Positions 4,478-58,355 of a DNA stretch of 64,000 bases are shown piece by piece (within the stretch, counting starts at the first letter, position 1; each line of letters starts with the position of its first letter). A program made the position numbers and the translations under genes. Source of the stretch: Halichondria panicea (Eukaryota > Porifera > Demospongiae > Suberitida > Halichondriidae); contig NC_087389.1 in NCBI RefSeq assembly GCF_963675165.1, positions 5,752,621-5,816,620 on the forward strand, read 5' to 3'. The notes under the pieces were generated by a model, which was not told the origin of the DNA, did not search any database, and was given only the letters and a program-made list of their open reading frames with translations.

Positions 4478-7400
4478 CTGGGAGAAGGAAAGGATGTAGT
4501 TAAATGGGCGGAATGTCCGATATAATTATTGTGTTATACATAATTGTAGACATGAAATTCCTATAGTTCTAAAAGTAAACTGTACAGAACACTATATATA
4601 CAATGTATGCACATACCTGAGGGAATGGTGTGTGGATATGAAGTGAGGACATCTTGTGAGGTATCTCCTTTAGTGACATCAGATGGTACAGCATCAGTCA
4701 GTACAGTAGAGGCTGTGTGCATTCATTAATAACATAACTGTCATTGTGAAAATACACTACACATCTTACGTGCAAGTATATAGATTGCCGACAAGGATAG
4801 CAACACTCACCTGTTGTATGTTGGTCTGTTCTGTGTGTAGACTGCAGGGCTGTAGTACAAGTAGCCTCGTCACTAGCTGTGGGGTGGTGCTCTACTGGTG
4901 ATGCTTGAGAGAAGCTCTGTTCATTGATAAGAGTGTCTGGATCAGTGACATCACTAGGAGTGTCCACTGTATCTACAACCTCATCTATTGGGTGGTGCTC
5001 TACTGATTCGTTAGTGGAATGCCATGAATCACTGCTGTCATCATCATCATCATCATCGGGATATCTCATCTACAATAAGATCACGATAAGTGTTAAAGAA
5101 TGATATGACACAACACTCACTTGAGTACGTTCCTTCAATTCCTCAATGGTCACAGTCCTCGGTCCACCAGCTCCTGGGAGAAGGAAAGGGGTGTGGTTAA
5201 TGGGGCGGAATCTCCGACAGTGAACAAACATTGAATTACCTAACTCTCTAAAAGTACACCCAGATATAGAACACTACAAATCCAATTTGAATTAACAGAA
5301 GCATACTTTACATCATTATAATAATTATTGTATACTGTATAGTGCAAAATTTTCAAGGGGCTTAATTTTCACTGATTTCGTGGGTTAGCAATCCTACACA
5401 AAAATAAACTCCATGAAAATTGTTAGAATTATCTGCTATAACGTGCAAAGATTAAAGGCGTGGTAAGCAGTCATTTCCACGAACATTGTGCAACGAAATG
5501 CTTTAAGAGCTATATAGGCTATTCCACGATATATAAGTGCCTCAAAAATTTCACACTATATATACGGTACGTAATTCACACATACCTGAGGGAATGGTGT
5601 GTGGATATGAAGTGAGGACATCTTGTGAGGTATCTCCTTCAGTGACATCAGCAGCTGTGTCTAATATTGAGATACAGTATTCAGCTGTATCTACACTACA
5701 ACTACGTATATATTAATGACAACATGCATAACAGCGTAAAACCATCACGTTGTAGTCAATAATGTTCCACATAATATTATTAGAGCTTACATTATAATGA
5801 TTGTACGTACGCTGTATGTACTTACTAGAGTATTGCTGCTGATCACTCTTTCTCTCAGTACAAGTACCTCCCGTAGCAGACGATGGTTTTCCTAATTATG
5901 AGTAAAAATATCAATAAGTATAAGTATACTGAATTTTGAAGTGTTAATTGATAGAAGAAAAGCCCAATGCATGTGTCTCACTGTCAAGCACATACTGATA
6001 CGTGGTGAAGTTAAAAAAATGCACAAACACTGAAAATATATAGTTACCTGTGATGCTATCAGCCAAATTGATGAGATCCACAGTGGGCCTTCTGAGAGCG
6101 TCTGATAGGAGACTCCATGTTACATGTTGTGTACTCAGGAGCTTGGCCAACATTTCACGCAAGCACAACACATTATCTTCACGACACTTGATATTGATGT
6201 TGGTGAGATCAGGATGAGTTAGACCTAGAGCCAATCCCAGATTGAACCAGTGAGGGCTGGCACTTTTATGTAGTTTCTCGTAAACATGTTGTAGATCGTT
6301 GATTATCAAAGCCTGTATGTACAAAAGCAACAATCAACAGGGTTTCATTTGGTGAGGGTACCCCCTCGGAAATACCTTCTAGAGGAAACTCAATGGGAAT
6401 ACAATTGAGGGGTTCTGTTGAACAATATTCTTAACAGGGCAGTCCTAGGGTCACGAACCCTCTAGATATATACATGTCATCAACACCCTAATATCATGCA
6501 CGTGCACCATTTGCTCCCCTTGCCAAAATGTCAGGAGGATAAGTAGATACAAGATTTAGAGTACTGCCTACCTTGTGCACGTTCAGCAGATGAGGAAATT
6601 TCTCCGCGATTAGAATGATGTCACTCTCAAGGATTTCTTGATCTAGTTGTTGGTCCCTCACTCCAGTCTTCTTACACACATCTTCCATTACTGTAACAGA
6701 GGACAATTTACCGGAAGTGAAGAAAGAAAAATATAACAAAGAAACAAGTAAAAATAATTATTGGGCCAAAAGTAAAAGTATTCTTTATAAGCGACATAAA
6801 AAACTTAATTACAGCAACCATTGGAGATATTTTAGGACACAATAAACTGTTAAGTCTGAGTTGGTGCTACAATTACATCAACTACACAGTATCAACTACA
6901 CAGGCACTGAATTATACACGAGGATTAACATGATCAGGCACAGGACAAATTAATGATCATAACCTGTCGACCAAACGACACTTTCTTACTGGTATATTGA
7001 TGTGGATCGCTCGTTGTATTGACCACATGTTCCATTGCAGGAGACAATTTGTCTGAGGAGGGAATATTTATAATACAAAAGTGATTACAAAACAAAGCTT
7101 ACCAGAAGTAATGCACTGATCATGATCATGTACTTCCGTCTTCAAGCACACATCTTCCATTACAGAATTACCTGAGGAAAAGCAGACACAGCTCATGTAG
7201 TACGTCTGTCAATTAACATGCTCACTCAAACAAGGCTGTTGATCACTCATTCCAGATCCAGTGCTACTAACAACATTGGCCAGAGTCCCACATTGATTGA
7301 CTGAAAACAACAAGAATTACTATAAATTGACATCATGCGCATTGAACCCTGAACCGTCATACATATACAGGTATATTATACACGTACGGTGTATGTGCTT

Positions 7401-10400
7401 ACTAGAGTATTGCTGCTGATCACTCTTTCTCTCAGTCTTCCTACCAGTACCTCCCGTAGCAGACGATGGTTTTCCTAATAGAAGAATTTGAGGAGAAACT
7501 ATATAATTGGTAAAATAATACTTATCCACCGGAAACTTCCTTACTGGTATATTGATCACTCATTCTACACACAGGTTCCATTACAGGGGACGATGGACCT
7601 GAGGGGGATAATACAATGATACGAAAATACTTTGTTATACTAATGTAGTACACAAATATAAAAGCTGCAAATATTTACGTATAGTGCTACATAACTACCG
7701 GAGTATTGCAGCTGATGTCTCTTTCTTTCAGTGTTCACCTCTGAGGAGGCTTCACCTATAACAAAGGAAACATGATAGTTAGGTAATTAACATATTCAGT
7801 ATTAAGTAACCTAATAAGTGATAGTAAAGCAATGTATGTCATGTACTTACCAGATTGTTGCTGCTGATCACTCAATGTCATCTTTGTAGACATGTCTCCC
7901 GTAACAGAGGATAACGCACCTAATTGAGGGGGAGAGATAATAAACTACATGCATAATTAGAGACAATACATGAAACTATAAATACACTGTAATGCATGTA
8001 CTGCTATCACAATGCCCTACACAGAATGTATACCATAGTTGCTATTCATCTACCCCCTCCCCGGAAGTTACAAGGAAAGGAAATATAAAGTAATAACTCA
8101 CCTTCCGCAGGAATAATTGCCGTACCTAACCAAACAGTATGACTCGTCTTGAGATCCCCATCTAGATCAAAATCTTCAGAACAGCACCACAGTTTTGTCG
8201 ATAAGTGGATATCAGCAAAATGGCGTTTGCCTTGTTGTGTTGCTCCTTCGTGAGGGCAGAAGATGCTAATGACTGGCTTGTCGTTGTTGTAGTGAAGTGC
8301 ATCAGAAGCAGCATCTACACCTTCAAGGACACTGGCTCTAACTAGAGGACACACGGTCAGAAGCACATGTGGTCGGGCTTTGACATGGACCTCCATATAA
8401 GAGAAGGAATCAATCAGTGTAACGCTACCAGGAGAATCGGGTAACCGAAACTTGACACAGTTCCTAGCTAAAAGAACCGGCTTTCCAGAAGGAAGACACA
8501 CTATCCACCCACACTTCTTCATGAGGAACACCACTAGACAACAGAAGACCCCACATCGAATACAGCCACTGACAAATCGGATGAGAAGAGGATCAGCTGA
8601 GGAAGTGAATACACGATGGTCCTCTAGCTCAGAGGGTGGAACAGATCTGAGGAGACTGGGCATGAGAAACTCCACTTGAGAGAAAGAGCAATCAACTCGA
8701 CCAAGTAGTGGGATGGTGAGAGGGGCTATTATCAGAAGCTCCATCATGATTGCTATCATATCAGCAGGTGTGAAAAGGCCGTCTTCGTAATGCTTCTGGA
8801 ACTCTTCCGATTCGAGCATATCAATAGTAAAAATACCTTGATCTCTGAACTTGAGCCATTTTGCAGCCTTGGCAGAAGGACGTTTTCTTTGATCCCTCAG
8901 GGAGACAGCATGTTGTGTTAACTCACTAACTTTGTCTAGTGGGACTTGAGGATCCACAAACACAGTGTGGGGCAGGATGTGTGGGTAGTAGTGGACAATG
9001 CACATGTCATTGAAGTAGTCGAGAGCAGCATCCAACGCAGATGGATGGAATCCAAGCTGTTGAGCCAAAGCGATACACTCACTCTTACTAAGGATACCTC
9101 TTTTCATGATCTTGCAAAGCTTTTGTAGAGCTAACTCGAGGATGAACCACCACAGGGGAACTTTGAGGTCGAATGTAGGCGAATTTTCCACAGCTTTCCG
9201 AATTTCTTTGGCAACCTCTTGTGCATTTTCATCACGACTGCAAGCATTGACGGTGAATATCACCTGTTTCAATGGCAGATTGCTGTAGATGACTTCTTCT
9301 TTCAGTTCAGGAGGCAAAGCATCAAGCAGGGCTTGGTTTTTCTTGTCGATAACTTTTTGATCTTTGATTTTATCGGAGAAAGTGCCCACAAAGATGGGGC
9401 GTGGCGTTTTCCCATCCCTCTTGCAGGAGAGAAAGGATCGCAGTAAACTCATATTGGTTTCCAGATAGGAAAGGTGAGATGGAGATGAGGGACCGACTGG
9501 CTTTCCATCCTTGTACAAGTCGTCGTGGGGATAATCTGCAAAATCATCAGTGAGCCTGGAAACAAACAGCCCTGCTGAAGCATGTCGAATGAAGAGAGGG
9601 GCCACATCGTGAAACTGAGGCTGTCCTCCATTGTCGGTCACACGCATCGTTTTCGTACCAAACAGTTCTTTGCCTTCAGTTGAGGAGATTGAGGCTTCTT
9701 GTTGTGACGGTGTTGACACCATAGCTTCAACGACTAACGCGACAACATCTTCGATTGCTTGCTGCACAGGAGAAACACTCTCTTGAGAAGGTGGGATTGA
9801 AGTAGCTTCGGTTGCTGCACTGGTACTGGCTTCAGTGGACAATTCCTTGAGCCTGGTCTGAAGGTCACTAGGTAGCTTGTCACGAGAGCTCTGGGGTAGA
9901 TGCTGAATGGCCTTTGCCAACATGTTGACCAAATCCTCTTCACTTACTTCCTCCCATTTGTTGTCAGAACCCTGGAAACGACCCTGAAAAAGGAGATTGG
10001 TGACTGGTCGAACGTGGGCTATTCTATCTCGACAAGGAGTACTGTTTCGTACTTCTGAAGGTGGATTGCCAAGCAAGAGATTCTTTGTGGCTGATTTACC
10101 GCTACCAGCTGCACCCATGAGTAGGAGGTTGATGTTGCGAAGAATAACGTATCCATCCTTCATGGCCTCATCAAAGAGATGCTGCGCAGACTCTGTGATT
10201 AAAATTGCACAACTAGCTATAATTATATTGAATATTTACGCCAGACAAAAAATTTGATTACTTTTTTAGAACCGATGCAGGTAGGAAAAATATGCGCTCA
10301 TGCATGGGGTCAATAGCAGATGCTTATATTCGAGAATGCGCCTATAATGCAGTCATATTCTAGCCCCACCCAGTAACCGGATGTCTCTGTGACGAGTGAT

Positions 10401-13400
10401 GTTTCGAGGCAAGCTAACTCGATCTATATCATAATTATGTTACAGTTCATTTTACAGTTCATTTTAAATTCATAATTATTATAATTTATTATAAAAATAT
10501 TCATAAATATTGAGCAAGAACTTGGAACAAAAAGACGTCTCACATTCTCTCAGCATGATCAGACAAGATAACGGCATGCCCAGAGAGTCCTTCCAGATGG
10601 ATATCATCAGCTATAATTATAGCTACCATGCACTGTACAAGCTAGCTCATAGGAATCAATTCAAAATGTTCACCAAATAATATATTATCTTTCGCATGCC
10701 ATGTAAACGTAGCGGGTAATTTTTTTGGGGTAAAAATTCGTTCCACTCGAACACGGTGATGTTCGTGAGTCAAAATGTTCATTGCCTGCACTGCATTGCA
10801 TGCGTTCCAGTAAACCACGCCTAGGTCAGCTTGCCCACAAAAATAATTTACCCCACAAAAATTATCCGCTATATGGTAGTCTGTCAATTGGCTTGGCATA
10901 ATCAACCCTACAGGTTAGGTAGTCCATTGGTTTGGATATAGCCTAAACAAAACAAGTTATTAGTTTTTCAGATTTTGATGTTAAAGTCTCCCACACGCCT
11001 CAGGGTTAATTGTATTGACATTCTGCGCAACCAAGACAGTGTGAAAACACAATACAATAACAGTACTTGTGATCACACATACATGTTGTATTGTAAACAA
11101 AATTACATTAAATCATACGTAACTTGGTGCATGTACAATAGAGTACATTGAGTGTGGAAGGCAACTAGGTAGCTCTAGTTATACAATAGAAAAGCATTTA
11201 ATGGAAGGACCGGCATCGATCTGCTACAAACAATGGATACAGCAGCTGTACGTACATAAAACTTTAAAGCTTGCTAAGTGAGTGACCCACCAATGACAGG
11301 GAATGTGGCTGATCATTACAGGAATGTGCTATGAATGAATTAACATGATGATGTCACTAAGTACACAGTACAACGTTACCAACCCAATCACTCAATCACA
11401 GTGACTGTACATGTATGTGTGCATATATTGATGCAATGTCCGATAAACAGTATCCATAATTAATTATAACACATGTACCACAGTGTGTGGAATATAGTCA
11501 AAGGAACAATGCTCTAGCTTGATCAAACCAGGACCACATGGAAGGGAGTAAGCAACTAATACACACCATATAAATACATGTCAGGTATGTCAAACACACT
11601 TGTAGTAATGTAATTTGTGTGTGTTGACCAAGGCTAGGCGGGCTAATCATAGATTAAGTCTACGCATGTGCTTGTGCAATTAATCCATGATTTGAGTGGT
11701 TGCATACAAACCTTATTAAGGTAATGAAAGAGGTGAAGCTAACAGTTTAATAAGAGCGGGATTACCAACATTGAAACATTGAGACAGCGAACAACAGCTG
11801 TACGTACACACTACATGTATACAGTAGAGGACAAATTAAAGTTTATGATGCGTTTGTTAACCCGAGGCACTCCACGGGCTATAGTAGTCAATCTGTGTGT
11901 CTGTGGATATGAGTCTATACTCACCCGGATGTGATAGCACTGTATTGGTACCATGGATAGCCTCAACACAACAAGGTTTTATAATATTAAAGGTTAAAGC
12001 TTTGTTGTCGAGCAAAAGCTAAAAAGCATAAACTGCACTGCAAGTTGGCCTAGATATACACGTGACTTTGACTCGAGGCTGTAAACGTATAGACCTCAAA
12101 CTAACACCGAGGGTATGCACTTCAGTTTGATTCTGTTGCACAAACAAAATAATTGTTTTTGTGCATGTGCGCTCAAGCTTGCAATATATAGGTACTGAGA
12201 GCAAAAACGTTTTAACTTTCCTCGTAAATAATTGGAAAATGCAGAGCGGGATTACAAACATTGTACAATGGATTTTGTACGTACAGTCTACTAATAACTA
12301 TAGTCACGGTAGAGGACAAATTAACGTTTCTGTTCTGTTTGCATATAATTATAGTCTCTGCATTTGTGCTGATTCTGTTGCACAAGCCAGTGGGAAATGC
12401 AGTAGCTAGGAAGGTACTGAGAGCGAGTGGAAAACATGTGAACGCCCAAGCACAGGAAGCCACACCCACTTTCCTGCGCATGACAGGTGTGGTCACTAAA
12501 CGTACAAAAGCTCAATCTGAATACCTAGTGCTGCTCACTGCTTATGAATAGCTCCACTTTAGCTTATACTATAAGGCCTAGAGGAGTGCTCATCTCATAG
12601 CTGGATAAGCAAAATAATTGTTTTTGTGCATGTGCAATCAAGCTTGCAATATCAAACCACTAATCATATTCATAGTAATTAAGGCTGATAATGTAAACAC
12701 AGTAATCACTAAACTATGCACAGGTGGTACAGTCAAATTCCTCAGTCACCAAATATTCCAGTTATATGGTACTATATGCGAACGAAACAGAAACTTTAAT
12801 TTGGCAAGTTGCTACAGGTACGAGTGATTGCAACTATGAGCATCAACACTCACTGTACTATAAAGTTCCTTGCTCCCCTCACCTTCCTTTCTCTGCCTCT
12901 CTGGTCTTCCTCGTATCTCAGCAATCCTATTCTCCTGGTCATGTATCCACCTCTCACGCTCTTGTATATCTGAGACACACTTCTTGATCTTCCCCTCCAC
13001 CTCCTCCAGCTCTCCCTGCAGTTGTCTCTGGTCCTGGTAAGTGATGTCATCAGACAGTCTCTGTTGGAGGGCAGCTCTTCTCTGGGGGGAGTAAAGAATA
13101 TATATACGACTGAATGAACATTCCACCAAATAGAACATGCAGCTGATACAAATCACTACTGCACGTTATAAGGTTAACAAATTGCGTACAATCCACATAA
13201 CAAAATATAAAGGTCAGCAACCACCAACCTATTCAATCAGTAAAAGTGGACTTATAAAACATACACAAAGGTAGACAAAAAGCAACCATTCATCATACAA
13301 TGGACAGTACATGTACACACATTGTCGTTCTGCTAGACTACGTGTACCACTCTAACCACGAGAGTAGTAAGTGCAACTGTCAACACTCACCGTCTCATAA

Positions 13401-16400
13401 CTCTTCAGTTCACTCTCCTTCTCAGCCTTCGTCTGGACAAGGTGAACAAGACAAGAGTGGGTTAGACTGTGTGTTTGTGGTCACACATTATGAGTTGTCT
13501 ATAGGTGTAGCTACGAGGGTCAGGTAAGGATATGAGACTATTACAAACTGAATGCACATGAGGTGTAGGGTATGTTTGCCAACATTGTTTGACTCACTTT
13601 CTATCGTTCCAGATATTCAGTAACCATGGAAATGTATGGAGAAAAAAGAATATAATCACAAACCTGTACACTATGATGTCAATAATTTATATTACACGGC
13701 ATGTACTCATACGTACAAATCAAACATTACTGACACAAGTACAGTCACAAGTCAGTGCAGTGTCCCGCTCACCTTCTGTTTAGTCCAATGAGACACCAGC
13801 GTAAGACACACATGGAAACAGAGAGAGGGGATGATGGTAGGAGCAGTGAGTGCATTCATACATGTCTGTATACTGTAACTTACAAACTGTTGTTCCAGTA
13901 ATCATTAGCAGTAGTCACATTAACAAGTAGTAGGACACGGACATGTAGAGAAATGAACATGTTCAAATACACGAATGCATTCACACATGTATACATCAAT
14001 TATTGCAAGTACACGTCTGTACAGCATGAAACTATCAAGAGCAGTACCAATCCTAAATAAAGCCACACAATTTCTGCCTTCATGCAGTAGTACATGTACA
14101 CAAGTCAGTCTAGTTTGCCATTAAATATAAAATGCTCAGCTAGCACACACTGACAATAATAAACTCACGTGCTGTTGTTGAGTAACAGTCCACAGAGGGT
14201 ACATGTGAGGAGAGAGGGATATGAACACACTTGTAGTAACACAGTACACACACTGGCTAGTACACACACAGGTACTTAGTACTAGCAATGGCAGATAATG
14301 GAAGGGTCAGTGGGTGGGTCAGTGGAAGGGGCGGTAAACGGTACAACAAGCATCTTACATGTACAACTTTGATACGTATGATTTTGTTTGTCGTACAATA
14401 CAACACACGCACTCCATGAGACACACACACAATCACAACGTACCTCAATGGAAACCTGAGACACATCAAATGGTACATGTGAGGGAGAGATTTAATCTTA
14501 ACACACATACAAGACATCAGATCAGTTGAACGCTGGTGTGTATGGGACTGACTACACATAGCAACAAGTGGAATACATCTAGACCTGGCACATTAAAGCT
14601 CTTGGGAACAATCTTGAGAAATCAAGAACTTAATTAGTTGGGGAATTTACATGTACACAATGTACACAATGCATGTACATGTGTGGTATTTCTAAATTGT
14701 GCGTAAAAATAATGGGACTATGAATAGTACAAGGTTACTGTTCGGAAATTTACGTACATGCAGATTTAGGAAAGTTAGTCAGTACAAACATTTTGGGCAA
14801 GTTTGGAGCATGTGTAATGTACCCTGGCCTACACCTGGGGTAACCACAAACTGTGAGGCTGATATCGTCCTCGTAGCCGTGGTCTACCCTATACGAGGGA
14901 GAGGGTCAGCTCTAGAGGACAAGGGACACACTAGTCATGCTAGGTAACCAGTACATCCGTACACATTGCAGCTGAACCATTTTAGTGTGTGGACATTGAG
15001 TACCCATAAGAAGCTCACCTCCTACAGTAGTCCAAATCAGTGTGAGGTCCAACATAGGAATGAGTGTGTGCATGGGAAGAGACAAACACGATAATGTACC
15101 AACTTAGATGCATATTCTATGAACCAACAAAAGTATTAAAAGTACAACCTAATAAGTTTTGTAGTTGGCAATATGCAAATTGAGAGATAAAGACTTTTAC
15201 AATTTCCTACAATTAGTGTAGGAGTTCCTATAGTAACCATTAAAATTAGTGTACACGTGCAAACACAACTTACAGCCTGTTGATCCAGAGAGGGAGAGTC
15301 CACAGGGCAAACACGTGGGAAGATAGTAAATGAATGATTACGAGGTTGAATCTGATCATACTAAATATTTCCCTATATAACACTATGGCACTGCACACAC
15401 ACAAGAGTAATAATGGGGAAGTAGAAACATCACAGACTAGTGTTCAAGCTGGCGCTGTGCTAATGCCTCTCGCCATGTTTTTGCTTTCGCTCAAAAGTAT
15501 TAGAGTGTTATCTATAATGAATTTTATATTAAAGTTAGCTTATCTATATAAAGTCACTGAGAAGAAAAGACTTATTTACATGCATCTATTGTTGTTATTT
15601 ATTGTATTATGTGGCTTACCAGGACCTCAAGAAAGAAGAAAATTGATTCTTCCAGGATCTGTAGTTCAGTGTATATAATATCTAAGAAGAAAAGACCTGT
15701 GTACATGCATATTGTTATCTATATTGTTATATGGTAGTGTTTTGTGGCTTACCAGGCCCTCAAGACAAAGATGATTCTGCCAGGAGGATCTGGATCTGGA
15801 TCTTGGATATTATTTTCTCACACATGGGGAATGAGCGCGCATGCGCATTACATCCACAGGAATAATTAAAGGGTGTGTCCAAAGAGATCAATTTCACAAA
15901 ATTAATGGCTACTGCTAGCTAGCTGTTTTAACAGATATTTTCTGAGTATTGTAGCTAACAAAAAGCTAGCGCTTTAGTGCAAGGCTAACTCATATGTTGA
16001 ATAGAAAGTTTGTGAGGACAGATGATGCTATGAAAGATTCTGAAGAGACTGCAACAGCCTTCAATGTGAGTCAAACTAGCCATAACTCGAGAAAGAAGCT
16101 TTAGTTTGCTAATCCACGAATCAAAATCCAAGAGAACGTGGCTAGAAGCCTATAGAAGCTGTTAGTTTTCGTCGCATTGTAACCGTTGAGCAGTTATAGC
16201 TGGAATACACACACACACAGACAGACAGACAGACAGACAGACACACACACAGTCAGCTTTACCGTATCCCTCGTGCGGCTACGCCTCGAGGCATAAATAT
16301 GCAACAGGCACTAAATACTCTGACAACACACACCAACTTACATCCTGTTGTTTCAGAGGGTCGGTCAAAGGTGAGGTGGAGATGCATGAAATGGAAGGAA

Positions 16401-16913
16401 GAGAACATTAGTGCAGTGATAAAGCCAAACATGCAGACTGAAACACTTGATTAACCATGCATACTTTCAGGGAATACTATACGAGTAGATCTACTGGTCT
16501 CAATTAAGGAATAGTATCACATTCAGTTATCCGTATGTGCTCTTCTTTACACTGTCTACCTCCTAACAACAAGTGCTCAGACCACAAGCATTTCAGCTTG
16601 GTAGAATGTGATTGCACACAACGTACCTCAATGCTTGTCTGTTGTCCATCCAGGGAGAGTGGTACATGTGGAGAGAACAACAACATGAGATAAAACACCT
16701 CACACTGACAGGGTAGAGTGTAGGCACTATACTGTGATGAATGAATGATGCCAAGTGTGTTTATGGGTGGTCAACAAGTACATCTAGGCACTAGGAGAAT
16801 GCACTGATCATGAGTATCTATCTATCATGTGAATATCATACCCTTTCATCCTCAGTAAGTCCATCTGTCAACTGTAGGGAACTAGCAGCATCCAGTGTTG
16901 TAGATTCAGCCAT
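4131..16913 (-). CDS. Gene A: multi-exon Roc-COR-like GTPase with helical N-terminus and Death domains
   Basis: Spliced minus-strand gene, 28 exons by inspection, 4209 nt of coding sequence and frame closed from ATG (16911-16913) to stop (4131-4133). Order: leader exon (16842-16913); nine microexons (16638 down to 13598); coiled-coil exons (13391-13432, 12883-13081); GTPase/COR exon (8102-10192); seven mini-exons (7919 down to 6990); half Death domain (6572-6711); Death domain (6048-6312); mini-exon (5826-5891); linkers (5586-5660, 5121-5173, 4811-5069, 4617-4712); terminal Death-type domain (4131-4477). Phases agree at every junction. All sites are GT donors and AG acceptors except the acceptor at 6712, which reads CG. 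GTPase plus Death domain suggests an intracellular signalling adaptor of the ROCO or NLR-like kind; that role is inferred. Gene B is a paralogue. Whether the microexons are all used needs a transcript. Confidence 0.72.
4617..5891 (-). CDS. Gene A linker exons between Death domains
   Basis: Exons 5826-5891 (mini-exon, KPSSATGG start), 5586-5660, 5121-5173, 4811-5069 and 4617-4712. The exon 4811-5069 opens with MRYP and seven Asp residues, then a Ser/Thr/Glu-rich stretch. 5586-5660 and 4617-4712 are duplicates sharing DTSQDVLTSYPHT. 5121-5173 duplicates the first 17 codons of the terminal domain (TIEELKER) and then splices away. Phases fit throughout. Low complexity and acidity suggest an unstructured spacer. 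Confidence 0.65.
6048..6711 (-). CDS. Gene A Death-domain exons (half domain plus full Death domain)
   Basis: The exon 6572-6711 encodes VMEDVCKKTGVRDQQLDQ and the following helix, the same N-terminal half found in the gene B Death domain. It then joins in frame (phase 0) to 6048-6312, which has Death-domain hallmarks: an early DLQHVYEKL helix, WFNLGLALGL, CLREML and a late TWSLLSDAL segment. The natural continuation of the first half is absent, so the two look like an exon-shuffled chimera. The acceptor of 6572-6711 reads CCGG where gene B has CAGG, so this exon may be skipped or mis-spliced; skipping it would break the frame. Confidence 0.7.
6990..7919 (-). CDS. Gene A mini-exon array (seven phase 1-1 exons)
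   Basis: Exons at 7851-7919, 7699-7755, 7545-7598, 7403-7474, 7226-7300, 7103-7171 and 6990-7052. Each is 54-75 nt, a multiple of three, with one coding base before the donor, so any can be skipped or duplicated without changing frame. They are mutually related: a start like SSVTGD or SSPVME and an end like SDQQQYS or SDQYTS. They form a flexible Ser/Thr/Gln-rich linker between the GTPase/COR exon and the Death domains. All have GT donors and AG acceptors. The pattern suggests growth by exon duplication and an opportunity for alternative splicing. Confidence 0.7.
8102..10192 (-). CDS. Gene A large exon: P-loop GTPase plus COR-like region
   Basis: A 2091-nt exon, phase 1 at both ends, encoding 697 residues without a stop. 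Visible motifs in order: Walker A GAAGSGKS about 30 residues in; STPCRDR near residue 55; a G3-like motif TDNGGQPQFHD near residue 180; VGTFSDK, which occupies the place of G4, near residue 270. The C-terminal half has the features of a COR (C-terminal of Roc) region: a WW-containing helix, ALDYFNDMCIVHYY, TVFVDPQ and later FLMPSLL. GGQPQFHD-type GTPases are widespread in sponges, cnidarians and molluscs. Likely activity is GTP binding and hydrolysis that switches the attached Death domains. The Roc-COR assignment rests on motif order only. Similarity to the gene B exon looks like about half of residues by eye. Confidence 0.85.
10193..12882 (-). other. Long intron of gene A between coiled coil and GTPase exons
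   Basis: No supported exon was found in this 2.7-kb stretch. It is nearly identical to 52561-55177 of gene B, apart from the 75-100 bp nearest the GTPase exon where similarity stops. Open frames here, such as those at 12.0-12.5 kb, occur on both strands in both copies and carry no domain. One 15-nt AG/GT-bounded segment (11925-11939) could be a further microexon but does not differ between copies. Confidence 0.6.
12883..13432 (-). CDS. Gene A coiled-coil exons
   Basis: Two exons. 13391-13432 encodes 14 residues (TKAEKESELKSYET). 12883-13081 encodes 66 residues plus one base, rich in Glu, Lys, Gln and Leu (for example QLQGELEEVEGKIKKCV), typical of a coiled coil. The donor at GAAG|GTGAGG gives phase 1, which matches the start of the GTPase exon; the alternative donor 40 nt further on would put a stop in the next exon. 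The segment probably mediates oligomerisation. Between genes A and B the residues around SDIQERERWIHDQEN are heavily substituted, while the first part of the exon is conserved. Confidence 0.75.
13598..16638 (-). CDS. Gene A microexon series (12-nt and 3-nt exons)
   Basis: Nine candidate exons, all phase 0, each bounded by AG and a strong donor: 16627-16638 (TSIE), 16342-16344 (GAT), 15274-15276 (GCT), 15019-15021 (GAG), 14444-14455 (VSIE), 14169-14171 (CAC), 13884-13886 (TTT), 13773-13775 (AAG), 13598-13600 (AAA). The sense-strand acceptors share an AACAG-like ending and the donors are GTAAGT, GTGAGT or GTACGT. Joined to the flanking exons they make a continuous charged helix leading into the coiled coil. 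Support comes from gene B, where the same nine slots exist and the coding letters differ at 10 of 45 positions while the introns are nearly invariant. Single-codon exons are very unusual. Some could instead be decoy splice sites, or the exons could extend through a non-AG acceptor. Confidence 0.5.
15434..16296 (+). mobile_element. Insertion present only in the gene A copy
   Basis: About 860 bp between the GCT and GAT microexons of gene A that is absent at the gene B site (around 57735). The ends carry related inverted words (TAATGCCTC and GAGGCATAA). It includes (AC)n/(AG)n tracts but no recognisable gene. It shows insertion after, or loss since, the duplication. Confidence 0.7.
16842..16913 (-). 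CDS. Gene A exon 1: start codon and acidic leader
   Basis: Encodes 24 residues starting MAESTTLDAASS and ending TEDER, followed by the donor GTATGA. The start is chosen because the homologous exon of gene B (58281-58355) has the same ATG and first seven residues, and the coding phase (0) fits the next exon. The two copies differ at about half of their later codons and by one codon of length, although the DNA on either side is almost identical. No signal peptide is visible, so a cytoplasmic product is expected. Confidence 0.7.
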
Positions 16914-17318: not shown

Positions 17319-17891
17319 TGGGTGAGTGGGTGAGTGTGTGTGTGTGTGTGGGTGGGGGTGTGTGTGTGTGTGTGTGGGGATGTGGGGGGGATCCATTAAT
17401 TAATGAATGTCTGAACATACGTAACAGTACACACATGACTGTACATGTAGACACGGCTTATAATAATCATCTGTTGGAATCTACAGGTAGGCAGTGGTAT
17501 CCATTAGTATCTGTTACTGAGGTATGCACTAGAATAGCCTAGCATATATAGACTAACAGGGAATTAGTATCTGTGAGGTATGCAACGGAATAATAGCCCA
17601 TAGCATGTAGCAAACAGCCTTATTCTATACACTACTGCAATTACCAGCTTAAAGCAGAACAGGGAGTTAGATACGTGTGCAATCCTGTACAATGGTAACA
17701 AGTATACAAACAATTTATTTTAGAGACAAATTAGCCAAGGAACAATGTAGGGCCAATAAAAGGATTGTTGTCATAGCAACAATGAGAATTGCCCGATAGT
17801 GTTAGCTAGTACCAGCCAATCAACTGATAGCGTTCTATTAGAGAAACATGGTCGAATAAGCACACGCCCACACACTCACACGCCCACTCAC

Positions 17892-19072
17892 CCACGCAGA
17901 TGTTCTCCATCCTGTAGCCACTCTTACACTCATCACAGCCCTCGCTCCAGAGCAGCTCAGCTGACAAGAGACGCTGTGTGTGTGCGTGTGTGTGTGTGTG
18001 TGGGTGTCCTAAAATCCTTATCATTACCACAAAATCACCATAGAATGTTGCTATTCTAACAACATCCTGAGCAATGATGGCTTCCAGAACTTGTATGGTA
18101 CTTTTTGAGGGCTAATATTTTCTGGCTAATCTGCGATAAAATTAGACCCTCGACAATTCTCCGCTATAAGGTGGTATCAATGGTAGATGCTCTTATCTAC
18201 TCTTGGTGGTATGGAAACTCACATATAAATTATGGTGAGGATTTGAAGTAGAGAATGGGCTGGGACTAGCTTGCATATACCAGCAGATATACCTGTATAG
18301 CTACTAATCTATCCACTGCATGTATGGAAAGCAGTGTGAAGGCTGAACAGCATGCAAGTCTCAGCATAAAGTGTTAATTGGTAGATCCCTACTGTTCTAC
18401 ATGGTCGAATAAGCACACGCCCACACACTCACACGCCCACTCACCCACGCAGATGTTCTCCTCCATCCTGTAGCCACTCTTACACTCATCACAGCCCTCG
18501 CTCCAGAGCAGCTCAGCTGACAAGAGACTGTGTGTGTGTGTGTGTGTGTGTCCTAAAATCCTTATCATTACCACAAAATCACTATACAATGTTGCTATTC
18601 TAACAACATCCTGAGCAATGATGGCTTCCAGAACTTGTATGGTACTTTTTGAGAGCTAATATTTTCTGGCTAATCTGTGAGATAAAATTATACCCTCGAC
18701 AATTCCCCGCTATAAGGTGGTATCAATGGTAGATGCTCTTATCTACTCTTGGTGGTATGGAAACTCACATACAAATTATGGTGGGGATTTGAAGTAGAGT
18801 ATGGGGTGGGACTAGCTTGCATATACCAGCAGATATACCTGTATAGCTACTAATCTGTCCACTGCATGTATGGAAAGCAGTGTGAAGGCTGAACAGCATG
18901 CAAGTCTCAGCATAAAGTGTTAATTGGTAGATCCCTACTGTTCTACATGGTCGAATAAGCACACGCCCACACACTCACACGCCCACTCACCCACGCAGAT
19001 GTTCTCCTCCATCCTGTAGCCACTCTTACACTCATCACAGCCCTTGCTCCAGAGCAGCTCAGCTGACAAGAG

Positions 19073-19111
<39 letters not shown>

Positions 19112-19375
19112 TAAAATCCTTATCATTACCACAAAATCACTATACAATGTTGCTATTCTAACAACATCCTGAGCAATGATGGCTTCCAGAACTTGTATGG
19201 TACTTTTTGAGAGCTAATATTTTCTGGCTAATCTGTGAGATAAAATTAGACCCTTGACAATTCCCTGCTATAAGGTGGTATCTTACTCACCCACACAGAT
19301 GTTCTCCTCCATCCTGTAGCCACTCTTACACTCATCACAGCCCTCGCTCCAGAGCAGCTCAGCTGACAAGAGACG

Positions 19376-19437
<62 letters not shown>

Positions 19438-19832
19438 TAAAATCCTTATCATTACCACAAAATCACTATACAATGTTGCTATTCTAACAACATCCTGAGC
19501 AATGATGGCTTCCAGAACTTGTATGGTAGTTTTTGAGAGCTAATATTTTCTGGCTAATCTGTGAGATAAAATTAGACCCTTGACAATTCCCTGCTATAAG
19601 GTGGTATCAATGGTAGATGCTCTTATCTACTCTTGGTGGTATGGAAACTCACATACAAATTAATTATGGTAAGGATTTGAAGTGGAGAATGGGCTGGGAC
19701 TAGCTTGCATATACCAGCAGATATACCTGTATAGCTACTAATCTGTCCACTGCATGTATGGAAAGCAGTGTGAAGGCTGAACAGCATGCAAGTCTCAGCA
19801 TAAAGCGTTAATTGGTAGATCCCCAGTGTTCT
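17892..19832 (-). repeat. Tandem array of about 550-bp units each carrying a CRELD-type exon
   Basis: Four exon copies at 17892-17973, 18445-18527, about 18988-19070 and about 19291-19375, encoding GCDECKSGYRMEENICV preceded by LLSAELLW. Each has a (CA)n tract directly before its acceptor on the sense strand. The third-to-fourth spacing is shorter by a deletion. Exon lengths differ by 2-3 nt (loss of CG or of one codon), so not all can keep the same frame. Flanking unit sequence (CTAAAATCCTTATCATTACC and so on) is shared. Confidence 0.75.
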
Positions 19833-54900: not shown

Positions 54901-57900
54901 AGCTGGATAAGCAAAACAATTGTTTTTGTGCATGAGCTTGCAATATCAAACCACTAATCATATTCATAGTAATTAAGGCTGATAATGTAAACACAGTAAT
55001 CACTTAAACTATGCACAGGTGGTACAGTCAAATTCCTCAGTCACCAAATATTCCAGTTATATGGTACTATATGCGAACGAAACAGAAACTTTAATTTGGC
55101 AAGTTGCTACAGGTACGAGTGATTGCAACTATGAGCATCAACACTCACTGTACTATAAAGTTCCTTGCTCCCCTCACCTTCCTTTCTCTGCCTCTCTGGT
55201 CTTCCTTGTATCTCAGCAATATCATTCTCATTGCCATGTATGAACCGCTCATACTTCTGTATCTCTGAGACACACTTCTTGATCTTCCCCTCCACCTCCT
55301 CCAGCTCTCCCTGCAGTTGTCTCTGGTCCTGATCAGTGATATCACCAGACAGTCTCTGTTGGAGGGCAGCTCTTCTCTGGGGGAGTAAAGAATATATATA
55401 CGACTGAATGAACATTCCACCAAATAGAACATGCAGCTGATACAAATCACTACTGCACGTTATAAGGTTAACAAATTGCGTACAATCCACATAACAAAAT
55501 ATAAAGGTCAGCAACCACCAACCTATTCAATCAGTAAAAGTGGGCTTATAAAACATACACAAAGGTAGACAAAAAGCAACCATTCATCATACAATGGACA
55601 GTACATGTACACACATTGTCGTTCTGCTAGACTACGTGTACCATTCTAACCACGAGAGTAGTAAATAAGTGCAACTGTCAACACTCACCGTCTCACAACT
55701 CTTCAGTTCCCTCTCATACCTAGCCTTCGTCTGGACAAGGTGAACAAGACAAGAGTGGGTTAGACTGTGTGTTTGTGGTCACACATTATGAGTTGTCTAT
55801 AGGTGTAGCTACGAGGGTCAGGTAAGGATATGAGACTATTACAAACTGAATGCACATGAGGTGTAGGGTATGTTTGCCAACATTGTTTGACTCACTCTCT
55901 ATCGTTCCAGATATTCAGTAACCATGGAAATGTATGGAGAGAAAAGAATATAATCACAAACCTGTACACTATGATGTCAATAATTTATATTACACGGCAT
56001 GTTCTCATACGTACAACTCAAACATTACTGACACAAGTACAGTCACAAGTCAGTGCAGTGTCCCGCTCACCTTCTGTTTAGTCCAATGAGACACCAGCGT
56101 AAGACACACATGGAAACAGAGAGAGGGGGATGATGGTAGGAGCAGTAAGTGCATTCATACATGTCTGTATACTGTAACTTACATGCTGTTGTTCCAGTAA
56201 TCATTAGCAGTAGTCACATTAACAAGCAGTAGGACACGGACATGTAGAGAAATGAACATGTTAAAATACACGAATGCATTCACACATGTATACATCAATT
56301 ATTGCAAGTACACGTCTGTACAGCATGAAACTATCAAGAGCAGTACCAATCCTAAATAAAGCCACACAATTTCTGCCTTCATGCAGTAGTACATGTACAC
56401 AAGTCAGTCTAGTATGCCATTAAATATACAATACTCAGCTAGCGCACACTGACAATAATAAACTCACGTGCTGTTGTTGAGTAACAGTCCACAGAGGGTA
56501 CATGTGAGGAGAGAGGGATATAAACACACTGGTAGTAACTCAGTACACACTGGCTAGTACACACACAGATACTTAGTACTAGCAATGGCAGATAATGGAA
56601 GGGGTCAGTGGGTGGGTCAGTGGAAAGGACGGTAAACGGTACAACAAGCATCTTACATGTACAACTTTGATACGTATGACTTTGTTTGTCGTACAATACA
56701 ACACACGCATTCCATGAGACACACACACAATCACAACATACCTCAATCCAATCCTGAGACACATCAAATGGTACATGTGAGGGAGAGATTTAATCTTAAC
56801 ACACATACAAGACATCAGATCAGTTGAACACTGGTGTGTATGGGACTGACTACACATAGCAACAAGTGGAATACATCTAGACCTGCCACATTAAAGCTCT
56901 TGGGAACAATCTTGAGAAACCAAGAGTTGGGGAATTTACATGTACACAATGCATGTACATGTGTGGTATTTCTAAATTGTGCGTAAAAATAATGGGACTA
57001 CGAATATTACAAGGTTACTGTTTGGAAATTTACGTACAAGCAGATCTAGGAAAGTTAGTCAGTAAAAACATTTTGGGCAAGTTTGGAGCATGTGTAATGT
57101 GTCCTGGCCTACACCTGGGGTAACCACAAACTGGGAGGCTGATATCGTCCTCGTAGCCGTGGTCTACCCTATACGAGGGAGATGGACAGCTCTAGAGGAC
57201 AAGGGACACTCTAGTCATGCTAGGTAACCAGTACATCCGTACACATTGCAGCTGAACCATTTTAGTGTGTGGACATTGAGTACCCATAAGAAGCTCACCT
57301 CCTACAGTAGTCCAAATCAGTGTGAAGTCCAACATAGGAATGAGTGTGTGCATGGGAAGAGACAAACACGATAATGTACCAACTTAGATGCATATTCTAT
57401 AAACCAACAAGAGTATTAAAAGTACAACCTAATAAGTTTTGTGGGCCTCGGCTAATACCAAGTTGGCAATATGCAAATTAAAAGGCAAAGACATTTTACG
57501 ATTTCCTACAATTAGTGTAGGAGTTCCTATAGTAACCATTAAAATAAGTGTACACGTGCAAACACAACTTACACGCTGTTGATCCAGAGAGGGAGAGTCC
57601 ACAGGGCAAACACGTGGGAAGATAGTAAATGAATGATTACGAGGTTGAATGTGATCATACTAAATATTTCCCTATATAACACTATGGCACTGCACACACA
57701 CAAGAGTAATAATGGGGAAGTAGAAACATCACAGAATATGCAACAGGCACTAAATACTCTGGCAACACACACCAACTTACATACTGTTGTTTCAGAGGGT
57801 CAGTCAAAGGTGAGGTGGAGATGCATGAAATGGAAGGAAGAGAACATTAGTGCAGTGATAAAGCCAAACATGCAGACTGAAACACTTGATTAACCATGCA

Positions 57901-58355
57901 TACTTTCAGGGAATACTATACGAGTAGATCTACTGGTCTCAATTAAGGAATAGTATCACATTCAGTTATCCGTATGTGCTCTTCTTTACACTGTCTACCT
58001 CCTAACAACAAGTGCTCAGAGCACAAGCATTTCAGCTTGGTAGAATGTGATTGCACACAACGTACCTCAATGCTTATCTGTTGTCCATCCAGAGAGAGTG
58101 GTACATGTGGAGAGAACAACAACATGAGATAAAATACCTCACACTGACAGGGTAGAGTGTAGGCACTATACTGTGATGAGTGAATGATGCCAAGTGTGTT
58201 TATGGGTGGTCAACAAGTACATCTAGGCACTAGGAGAATGCACTGATCATGAGTATCTATCTATCATGTGAATATCATACCCTTTCCCAATCCTCAAGTT
58301 CATCCTCCATCAACTGTGGGGAACTAGCAGCATTCAGTGTTGTAGATTCAGCCAT
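48608..58355 (-). CDS. Gene B: paralogue of gene A with a single Death domain
   Basis: Spliced minus-strand gene, 21 exons, 3336 nt, frame closed from ATG (58353-58355) to TGA (48608-48610). Order: leader (58281-58355); nine microexons (58077 down to 55896); coiled-coil exons (55689-55730, 55178-55376); GTPase/COR exon (50410-52560); seven mini-exons (50354 down to 49136, omitting a damaged one near 49.8 kb); Death domain (48608-48978). Same layout as gene A but one Death domain instead of several. 5' introns match gene A closely; the coding parts do not. Role inferred as for gene A. Duplication, gene conversion, or two haplotypes assembled in tandem could all explain the pair. Confidence 0.75.
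49136..50354 (-). CDS. Gene B mini-exon array
   Basis: Usable phase 1-1 exons: 50289-50354, 50135-50188, 49982-50053, 49652-49708, 49489-49551, 49336-49407 and 49136-49204. The order repeats as a block: an EASS-type exon, a PSSPVMEP-type exon, a KPSS/ASSS-type exon and a SSVTGD-type exon, twice in tandem. An eighth, ending at 49842, keeps its acceptor and SSVTGD coding start but has lost the donor after DQQ, so it is probably dead. The array links GTPase and Death domain. Confidence 0.7.
50410..52560 (-). CDS. Gene B large exon: P-loop GTPase plus COR-like region
   Basis: A 2151-nt, phase 1-1 exon encoding 717 residues. Walker A GPAGTGKT about 30 residues in; STPCMEK; an acidic Ser/Asp-rich insertion (residues roughly 120-170) absent from gene A; G3-like TDCGGQPQFHD; VGTFLDQ at the G4 place; COR-like features LDFFDEVCIAHYY, TVFVDAQ and FFMPSLL. 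Same role as the gene A exon, but with many replacements across its whole length, while introns and mini-exons on both sides remain close to gene A. Confidence 0.85.
55178..55730 (-). CDS. Gene B coiled-coil exons
   Basis: 55689-55730 encodes TKARYERELKSCET and 55178-55376 encodes the 66-residue coiled coil, ending phase 1 at GAAG|GTGAGG. It has the same length as in gene A, but 19 of 199 nt differ in the second exon. About fourteen of these lie in a roughly 55-nt patch encoding SEIQKYERFIHGNENDI. The 165 nt of intron between 55731 and 55895 show no difference from gene A that I could see. Confidence 0.75.
55896..58355 (-). CDS. Gene B leader exon and microexons
   Basis: Leader 58281-58355 (25 residues, MAESTTLNAASS to ELEDWER). 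Microexons: 58066-58077 (ISIE), 57781-57783 (TAT), 57573-57575 (CGT), 57299-57301 (GAG), 56742-56753 (DWIE), 56468-56470 (CAC), 56183-56185 (CAT), 56071-56073 (AAG), 55896-55898 (AGA). Against gene A all ten nucleotide differences within these 45 nt change the amino acid. The joined peptide reads as one amphipathic helix (for example ISIEYREDWIEHHK), which supports real splicing of the tiny exons. Confidence 0.5.

What the first reader, a model, noticed from the sequence alone, without database searches (positions are those of the whole stretch)
13598..16638. Series of single-codon and four-codon exons in gene A
Six 3-nt segments (GAT, GCT, GAG, CAC, TTT, AAG), a seventh (AAA) and two 12-nt segments sit between AG and strong donors, all in phase 0, spread over 3 kb. 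Splicing them yields one continuous charged helix that runs into the coiled coil, and the total keeps the frame. A chain of single-codon exons is, to my knowledge, extraordinary. It would let single residues of a helix be swapped or skipped without frame change.
Basis: partly seen in the sequence, partly recalled or inferred. Interest (0 to 1): 0.95.

Follow-up and report, generated by a model that had tools for sequence, protein, structure and literature searches.

The report
Single-codon exons carrying hypervariable residues
In a family of about 45 related genes of one eukaryotic genome, a helix appears to be spelled out by a chain of exons most of which are one codon long, and the codons on one face of it differ from gene to gene while the introns around them hardly change.

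Summary
In detail: seven 3-nt and two 12-nt phase-0 segments lie between acceptors and strong donors on the minus strand, where stated. There is no RNA, but paralogs give strong indirect support. Each of six units tested recurs 39-46 times in the genome. In 27 loci AG and GT are kept at every unit found while the codons are hypervariable: of 25 columns with diversity >=0.6 among 2217, 16 fall in the 45 micro-exon bases, 7 in other exons, 2 in 2058 intron columns. Among 333 variable codons there is no stop; shuffled columns give 11. Joined in order, the exons spell xxIExxExxIExxKxxKAxx: one conserved, one hypervariable helix face, as in the uninterrupted next exon. Single-codon exons E and K are conserved and sit on the conserved face. 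The two closest pairs (about 1% intron divergence) differ at 9 and 12 of 12 variable residues. Best reading: a recognition gene family, perhaps with a Roc-like GTPase region, whose binding helix is encoded by single-codon exons under extreme diversifying selection, probably spliced stepwise. Targeted codon change is possible but less likely. Five of 27 loci lack blocks of units.

The parts
16842..16913 (-). exon 1 of gene A, MAESTTLDAASSLQLTDGLTEDER, donor gtatga; its last codons are variable in paralogs
16627..16638 (-). 12-nt exon TSIE (26 loci: xxIE or xxIK)
16342..16344 (-). single-codon exon GAT (D); hypervariable, 14 residues in 46 genome-wide hits
15439..16296 (.). about 857-bp insertion in the intron after GAT, absent from the 20 paralogous loci compared
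15274..15276 (-). single-codon exon GCT (A); hypervariable, 11 residues in 45 genome-wide hits
15019..15021 (-). single-codon exon GAG (E); conserved (21 E, 3 K of 24)
14444..14455 (-). 12-nt exon VSIE (25 loci: xxIE or xxIK)
14169..14171 (-). single-codon exon CAC (H); hypervariable, 11 residues in 39 genome-wide hits
13884..13886 (-). single-codon exon TTT (F); hypervariable, 11 residues in 39 genome-wide hits
13773..13775 (-). single-codon exon AAG (K); invariant in 24 of 24 loci
13598..13600 (-). single-codon exon AAA (K); 8 K, 8 E, 6 R, 2 N in 24 loci
13391..13432 (-). 42-nt exon TKAEKESELKSYET; codons 1, 4, 5 hypervariable
12854..13081 (-). 228-nt coiled-coil exon (76 aa) with the same IxxxExx-type variable pattern uninterrupted
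8049..10187 (-). long open stretch with a P-loop GTPase-like region (GxxGSGKS, DNGGQ by eye); Roc-like below Pfam cut-off; exon ends not determined
58066..58077 (-). second copy of the array in the window (gene B = L014): 12-nt exon ISIE
57781..57783 (-). gene B single-codon exon TAT
57573..57575 (-). gene B single-codon exon CGT
57299..57301 (-). gene B single-codon exon GAG
56742..56753 (-). gene B 12-nt exon DWIE
56468..56470 (-). gene B single-codon exon CAC
56183..56185 (-). gene B single-codon exon CAT
56071..56073 (-). gene B single-codon exon AAG
55896..55898 (-). gene B single-codon exon AGA

Best explanation
Gene A is one of about 45 paralogs that encode a recognition protein, probably intracellular: an N-terminal module with two variable helical segments, followed by a long exon with a Roc-like P-loop GTPase region. 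The first helix is encoded by the end of exon 1, two 12-nt exons, seven single-codon exons and a 42-nt exon, all phase 0. Conserved codons (I, E/K) form the face that packs; codons at heptad positions c, d, f, g (with I as a) form a recognition face that differs from paralog to paralog. Strong diversifying selection for amino-acid change acts on these codons, while recent duplication and exchange between copies keep the introns nearly identical. The micro-exons are probably joined stepwise: each acceptor-NNN-donor unit acts like a ratchet point that adds one codon at each hop. Shown from DNA: the anatomy, the copy number, hypervariability concentrated in exons, no stops, the helix-face pattern. 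Inferred: actual splicing, stepwise order, intracellular recognition, GTPase identity, and what is recognised.
For: AG and GT stand at all 269 acceptors and 296 donors found in 27 loci. Of 25 columns with diversity >=0.6 among 2217 examined, 23 lie in the 159 predicted exon columns; micro-exon against intron 16 of 45 versus 2 of 2058, Fisher p 1.5e-26. 333 variable codons from whole-genome patterns, 0 stops, shuffle mean 10.98, none of 5000 shuffles with 0; synonymous one-step codon pairs 12 of 202 against 205 of 998 for all one-step neighbours. pN far above pS at variable codons (0.619 and 0.240), not at conserved ones (0.077 and 0.106). Diversity along the joined helix peaks at period 3.6; at 3.5, 1 of 20000 residue shuffles and 8 of 20000 exon-order shuffles do as well; r = 0.91 with the pattern of the uninterrupted next exon, reached by 4 of 50000 exon orders. 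The 30 nt upstream of units D, A, H, F have diversity 0.004-0.01, below the intron means of 0.015-0.123, as expected for splice signals.
Against: No RNA; none of 94 matches of the joined peptide spans the array, so no intronless copy was found. Five of 27 loci lack blocks of units (L015, L023, L029, L031, L032), and one of 42 genome-wide copies of the first 12-nt unit has lost its AG. Acceptors lack a pyrimidine run directly before the AG. The upstream flanks of the E, K, AAA and 12-nt units are less conserved (0.034-0.129 in the first 30 nt). Full inclusion ranks 13 of 327 in-order subsets. pS is also higher at variable than at conserved codons (0.240 against 0.106; in the next exon 0.133 against 0.046), which selection alone does not predict. 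The Roc match is below Pfam's cut-off, the profile found no PDB relative at E 0.1, and structure prediction failed. Recognition rests on the substitution pattern alone.
Confidence: 0.7

Rival explanations
1. A dedicated germline (or somatic) process replaces or mutates the codons: each single-codon exon is a cassette whose flanks guide a targeted change, so diversity is generated, not only selected.
For: Even close pairs are near saturation: L020 and L012 differ at 12 of 12 variable residues with 1.1% intron divergence, and codon difference hardly follows intron divergence (Spearman 0.116, p 0.08). Five loci on two contigs share an identical 205-nt D-A intron yet carry three D codons and five A codons at its ends. 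With 60 identical nt on both sides the codon differs in 132 of 144 pairs, six units pooled. pS is raised at variable codons, and third bases vary in units H and in three of the four variable codons of the 12-nt units.
Against: In units D, A and F of the genome-wide listing the third base is 45 T and 1 G, 40 T and 5 G, 27 T and 12 G, never C, although T to C would be silent; selection on the amino acid explains this, blind codon change does not. (One locus, L011, has CTG in unit A, silent against CTT.) Equally variable codons sit inside the ordinary coiled-coil exon, so micro-exons are not needed for the diversity.
Confidence: 0.12
2. The segments are not exons; they are short hypervariable tags or leftover splice-like motifs in introns, and the real mRNA joins exon 1 to the 42-nt exon.
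For: No transcript evidence. Skipping all nine keeps the frame. Units resemble each other modestly, so splice-like motifs could have spread by duplication. Five of 27 loci lack some of them.
Against: Variation is codon-like, stop-free and mostly amino-acid changing. Conserved and variable units alternate in the heptad pattern of the next exon. The AAG unit is invariant in 24 of 24 loci.
Confidence: 0.06
3. Some units are parts of longer exons that use another acceptor or donor.
For: For D, A, H, K and the two 12-nt units no in-frame stop begins within 36 nt upstream in gene A.
Against: In gene A no other AG lies closer than 41 nt upstream of any of the nine; for GAG, AAA and TTT in-frame stops exclude it; residues added in numbers other than sevens would shift the helix register (inference).
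Confidence: 0.05
4. Optional use of the units tunes the helix by alternative splicing rather than constitutive joining.
For: Symmetric phase-0 exons; 12 in-order subsets fit the helix pattern better than full inclusion.
Against: Units are not alternatives at one position: together they fill successive heptad positions once each. No RNA bears on it either way.
Confidence: 0.15

Closest known systems
Micro-exon genes (MEG) of Schistosoma mansoni (PMC10526429, abstract passage seen)
   Same: Genes built from short exons, given there as 3-81 base pairs, with long introns; a multigene family.
   Different: MEG proteins are described there as secreted. Here only the 5' part is micro-exonic, larger exons follow, and single codons are themselves the hypervariable units while introns are near-identical among copies.
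bicycle genes of aphids (PMC9168663, passages seen)
   Same: Many unusually small internal exons of one phase in a large family under very strong positive selection.
   Different: Exons there are almost all phase 2 and the proteins are implicated as gall effectors; here exons are phase 0, most of one codon, and take up helix positions one by one.
Recursive splicing at ratchet points (PMC8605326, listing and abstract start only) and the single-nucleotide exon of Arabidopsis APC11 (PMC4674806, passages seen)
   Same: Acceptor and donor almost touching; [quoted passage not shown]
   Different: Ratchet points leave nothing behind; here each unit would leave one codon, and seven such exons sit in one gene.
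Fungal NLRs with hypervariable repeat positions (PMC4986451 and PMC12222747, listings and abstract starts only; details recalled)
   Same: P-loop recognition genes in which a few codons vary inside otherwise uniform DNA (recalled).
   Different: Variable codons lie in tandem WD-type repeats (recalled), not on separate single-codon exons.

Membership tests
Schistosoma-type micro-exon genes | internal exons of a few nt, multiples of 3 | tested here: met
   predicted internal exons of 3 (seven), 12 (two) and 42 nt
Schistosoma-type micro-exon genes | short exons make up the gene throughout | tested here: not met
   a 228-nt exon and a long open stretch of about 2.1 kb follow
Schistosoma-type micro-exon genes | secreted product | not tested
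   no obvious hydrophobic signal at the predicted N-terminus by eye; no predictor was run
bicycle genes | small internal exons almost all of phase 2 | tested here: not met
   the micro-exons here are phase 0
recursive-splicing ratchet point | acceptor AG directly followed by donor GT | tested here: not met
   three bases lie between them
recursive-splicing ratchet point | stepwise removal of an intron | not testable with these tools
   needs splicing intermediates
Roco (Roc-COR) proteins | Roc domain above the Pfam cut-off | tested here: not met
   PF08477 at E<=1 in 14 of 17 paralogous stretches, best E 0.01; in the two members whose scores were shown, 12.0 and 14.7 bits against a cut-off of 27
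Roco (Roc-COR) proteins | COR domain next to Roc | not tested
   resemblance seen by eye only; fold prediction failed
death-domain proteins | death-fold domain near the C-terminus | tested here: inconclusive
   looked like one by eye at 5944-6333; Pfam and PDB profile searches gave no death domain
hypervariable recognition gene family | amino-acid-changing variation far above the intron level at defined residues | tested here: met
hypervariable recognition gene family | binding of a variable partner | not testable with these tools
   needs binding assays

The most novel reading that the evidence does not exclude
The single-codon exons are exchangeable codon cassettes of a dedicated diversity-generating system: intron flanks guide replacement or mutation of one codon at a time across the roughly 45 genes, giving a eukaryote a combinatorial recognition repertoire built from codons rather than gene segments.
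Probability: 0.12. Interest if true: 0.98.

Novelty: new variant of a known kind. Interest (0 to 1): 0.9.

Why it matters
Single 3-nt exons are known one at a time. A conserved chain of seven, in about 45 genes, would show that a spliceosome can place single codons in series, and would be a natural test bed for how such exons are recognised. It also separates variable residues of a binding helix by homogenised introns, which makes it testable whether gene structure helps a recognition repertoire to diversify by recombination. If these proteins recognise self or microbes, the codons of each copy would be a readable recognition code.

Tried and rejected
Pfam on the two long ORFs gave nothing at E 0.001 and weak, mixed hits at E 10; a PDB search with one of them gave only weak small-GTPase and unrelated hits, best E 0.24, and the profile of 17 gave 0 at E 0.1. 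A death domain near the C-terminus was suspected by eye and not supported: Pfam gave none, and the best PDB matches of its five-sequence profile are designed TIM-barrel and repeat proteins. A search for an intronless or retroposed copy, which would prove the join, found separate exons and weak unrelated hits among 94 matches. The subset test does not single out full inclusion. Unit-to-unit likeness is modest in gene A: 7 of 45 pairs with p<0.01 upstream or downstream, and one 25-nt repeat family that links the D, A and F units. A model in which the codons are old balanced alleles in younger introns was considered: it predicts raised diversity next to the codons, and the two intron ends differ (mildly raised 10-45 nt from donors, low near acceptors), so it is left open. 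I first took the organism to be a sponge; nothing here tests that.

Rows dropped: units that did not align with score >=100 were left out, so of 27 loci 26, 26, 25, 24, 25, 25, 24, 24, 24 and 26 were used for the nine units and the 42-nt exon in order, and 20 for the coiled-coil exon (L029-L034 were fetched too short, L015 keeps only its end). A recheck of the five incomplete loci with looser patterns did not find the missing units, apart from one 3-mismatch D-type match in L032 at the place of its F unit. Pair tests use the 22 loci with all units. Introns of 1200 nt or more were left out of the intron alignments. L014, one of the 27, lies inside the window.
Full report
What is there. On the minus strand, between exon 1 (16913-16842) and a 42-nt exon (13432-13391), nine segments lie between an AG and a strong donor: two of 12 nt and seven of 3 nt. 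Between exon 1 and the 42-nt exon all seven sense-strand matches to AGNNNGTRRG are these seven; three matches lie on the other strand. The window lies at G000:C13:5752621-5816620 of a 131-Mb genome in 39 contigs.

A family. Exon 1 has 40 scored matches (of 45 candidates), 16 on C13 and 24 on C10; the 42-nt exon has 40 of 41. I fetched 20 loci of about 10 kb and 6 shorter ones; with gene A that makes 27. One of them, L014, is a second copy inside the window at about 55.7-58.4 kb. Whole-genome patterns with two mismatches allowed give 46, 45, 39, 39, 42 and 40 hits for units D, A, H, F and the two 12-nt units, with 0 in every reversed control. All listed hits lie on C10 and C13 except one A-type match on C17. 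Of the 27 loci 22 have all units. L015 lacks F and what follows up to the 42-nt exon, L023 all but D, L029 the block E-VSIE-H, L031 F-K-K, L032 D-A-E. Since every unit is a multiple of 3 these losses would keep the frame; whether such copies are active is unknown.

Hypervariable codons in conserved introns. Column diversity against gene A in 20 paralogs has a mean of 0.042 over 6167 columns with at least 12 sequences. From exon 1 to the 42-nt exon 2217 columns had at least 16 sequences; 25 reach 0.6, of which 16 are among the 45 micro-exon columns, 7 among 114 other exon columns and 2 among 2058 intron columns. Nine intron columns reach 0.5, so introns are not free of variable sites. Codon positions 1 and 2 of units D, A and H have diversity 0.62-0.75, position 3 has 0.08, 0.28 and 0.48. 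Units E and AAG are conserved: 21 E and 3 K of 24, and 24 AAG of 24. At the units found in the 27 loci all 269 acceptors are AG and all 296 donors GT; in the genome-wide listings one of 42 copies of the first 12-nt unit has TG for AG.

Why this is coding. Of 333 variable codons read from the genome-wide listings none is a stop; shuffling bases within each column gives 10.98 on average and never 0 in 5000 runs. Codon pairs one step apart are synonymous in 12 of 202 cases, against 205 of 998 for all one-step neighbours. All twenty residues occur, W (36), R (35), N (33), T (28) and D (27) most often. For the fetched loci the same test gives 0 stops in 376 codons against 5.67 expected, with 0 reached in 0.1% of shuffles. 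Three of the seven single-codon units cannot belong to a longer upstream exon because of in-frame stops.

One helix with two faces. Joined in order, the exons read ER-xxIE-x-x-E-xxIE-x-x-K-x-xKAxxESELKSHET. Counting I as position a, conserved or weakly variable residues stand at a, b, e and hypervariable ones at c, d, f, g. The diversity profile peaks at period 3.6; at 3.5, 1 of 20000 residue shuffles and 8 of 20000 exon-order shuffles do as well. The next exon, 72-77 codons and uninterrupted, carries the same pattern: between and after I39, I46 and I53 its columns above 0.6 are 41, 42, 44, 45, 48, 49 and 52; two more, 38 and 60, do not belong to the pattern. The joined array follows the template of columns 39-52 with r = 0.91, reached by 4 of 50000 exon orders. 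This is an internal control, since the pattern appears there without any splicing. It does not prove full inclusion, which ranks 13 of 327 in-order subsets.

How fast. Of 231 pairs among the 22 complete loci the two closest (0.96% and 1.13% intron divergence) differ at 9 and 12 of 12 variable residues; the 25 closest differ at 7 to 12. The mean over all pairs is 88%, with little relation to intron divergence (Spearman 0.116, p 0.08). Where 60 nt on either side are identical the codon differs in 132 of 144 pairs, six units pooled. Five loci, four on C13 and one on C10, share an identical 205-nt intron between D and A; their D codons are AAT, TTT, CGT, TTT, AAT and their A codons TAT, CTT, CAT, CTG, TGG. 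The upstream 30 nt of D, A, H and F are nearly invariant (0.004-0.01), those of the other units less so (0.034-0.129, measured without gaps). The long downstream stretch was found in 18 of the 20 long loci: 96-99.7% identical in protein between gene A and L010, L013, L020, and about 40-43% in the other 15. So the N-terminal block seems to have been shared among genes whose downstream parts are old. I assume that the nearest downstream copy belongs to the same gene.

Mechanism. Selection for amino-acid change explains best why third bases stay put in units D, A and F (45 T and 1 G, 40 T and 5 G, 27 T and 12 G, no C) while positions 1 and 2 are near saturation, and why the same happens in an ordinary exon. 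Against a pure selection reading: third bases do vary in H (26 C, 11 T, 2 G) and in three of the four variable codons of the 12-nt units, one locus has CTG beside CTT in unit A, and pS is higher at variable than at conserved codons (0.240 against 0.106, and 0.133 against 0.046). A targeted process is therefore not excluded. Exons this short can hardly be defined across the exon; removal of the two flanking introns one after another has been suggested for the single-nucleotide exon of Arabidopsis (PMC4674806, passages). By analogy each unit here would be a ratchet point that leaves one codon. That is inference.

Known relatives. PMC4674806 says that the smallest alternatively spliced exon known then had 3 nt. 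S. mansoni MEG genes have exons of 3-81 base pairs (PMC10526429, abstract passage); bicycle genes have many small exons of one phase and strong positive selection (PMC9168663, passages). A 3-bp exon in Drosophila homothorax (PMC7392893) was seen in a listing with its abstract start only. On a run of single-codon exons or on hypervariable ones: none of the 7 papers matching any of six phrases holds 'single-codon exons', none of the 15 listed of 725 holds 'single-codon exon', and the lists show no such report in titles and abstract starts. The library lacks most subscription journals.

What is not known. There is no RNA, no second individual and no second species. 

Noticed in passing
window 15439-16296: About 857 bp present in gene A's intron after the GAT exon and absent from all 20 paralogous loci compared, with a 4-base overlap at the empty site in most; parts match at 69-77% elsewhere in L009, L015, L019 and L028: looks like a mobile-element insertion.
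   Followed up: partly
window 17860-19480 (minus strand): Tandem repeats of about 550 bp, each with a segment that reads like a cysteine-rich EGF-like exon (by eye: ELLWSEGCDECKSGYRMEENICV), next to TG runs.
   Followed up: no
window 7068-7944 (minus strand): A run of short similar ORFs downstream of the GTPase-like stretch, with variable columns at 7739-7735 and 7718-7717: possibly a second small-exon array.
   Followed up: no
window 5944-6333 and 6494-6757 (minus strand): C-terminal segments also found in several paralogs; the first resembles a death domain by eye but no profile supports it.
   Followed up: partly
A-type unit, C10:354717, 591105, 664877, 715854 and C13:6029996: The TGG codon of the A unit comes with donor gttagt in 5 of 5 listed cases, on two contigs: a shared haplotype that marks exchange or common descent between clusters.
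   Followed up: partly
exon 1 of the 27 loci (L027: 30 codons): The end of exon 1 varies in length by whole codons (24 in 8 loci, 25 in 15, 26 in 3, 30 in 1) as well as in residues.
   Followed up: no
L015, L023, L029, L031, L032: These loci lack blocks of neighbouring units, so the array can lose codons in frame-neutral steps.
   Followed up: partly
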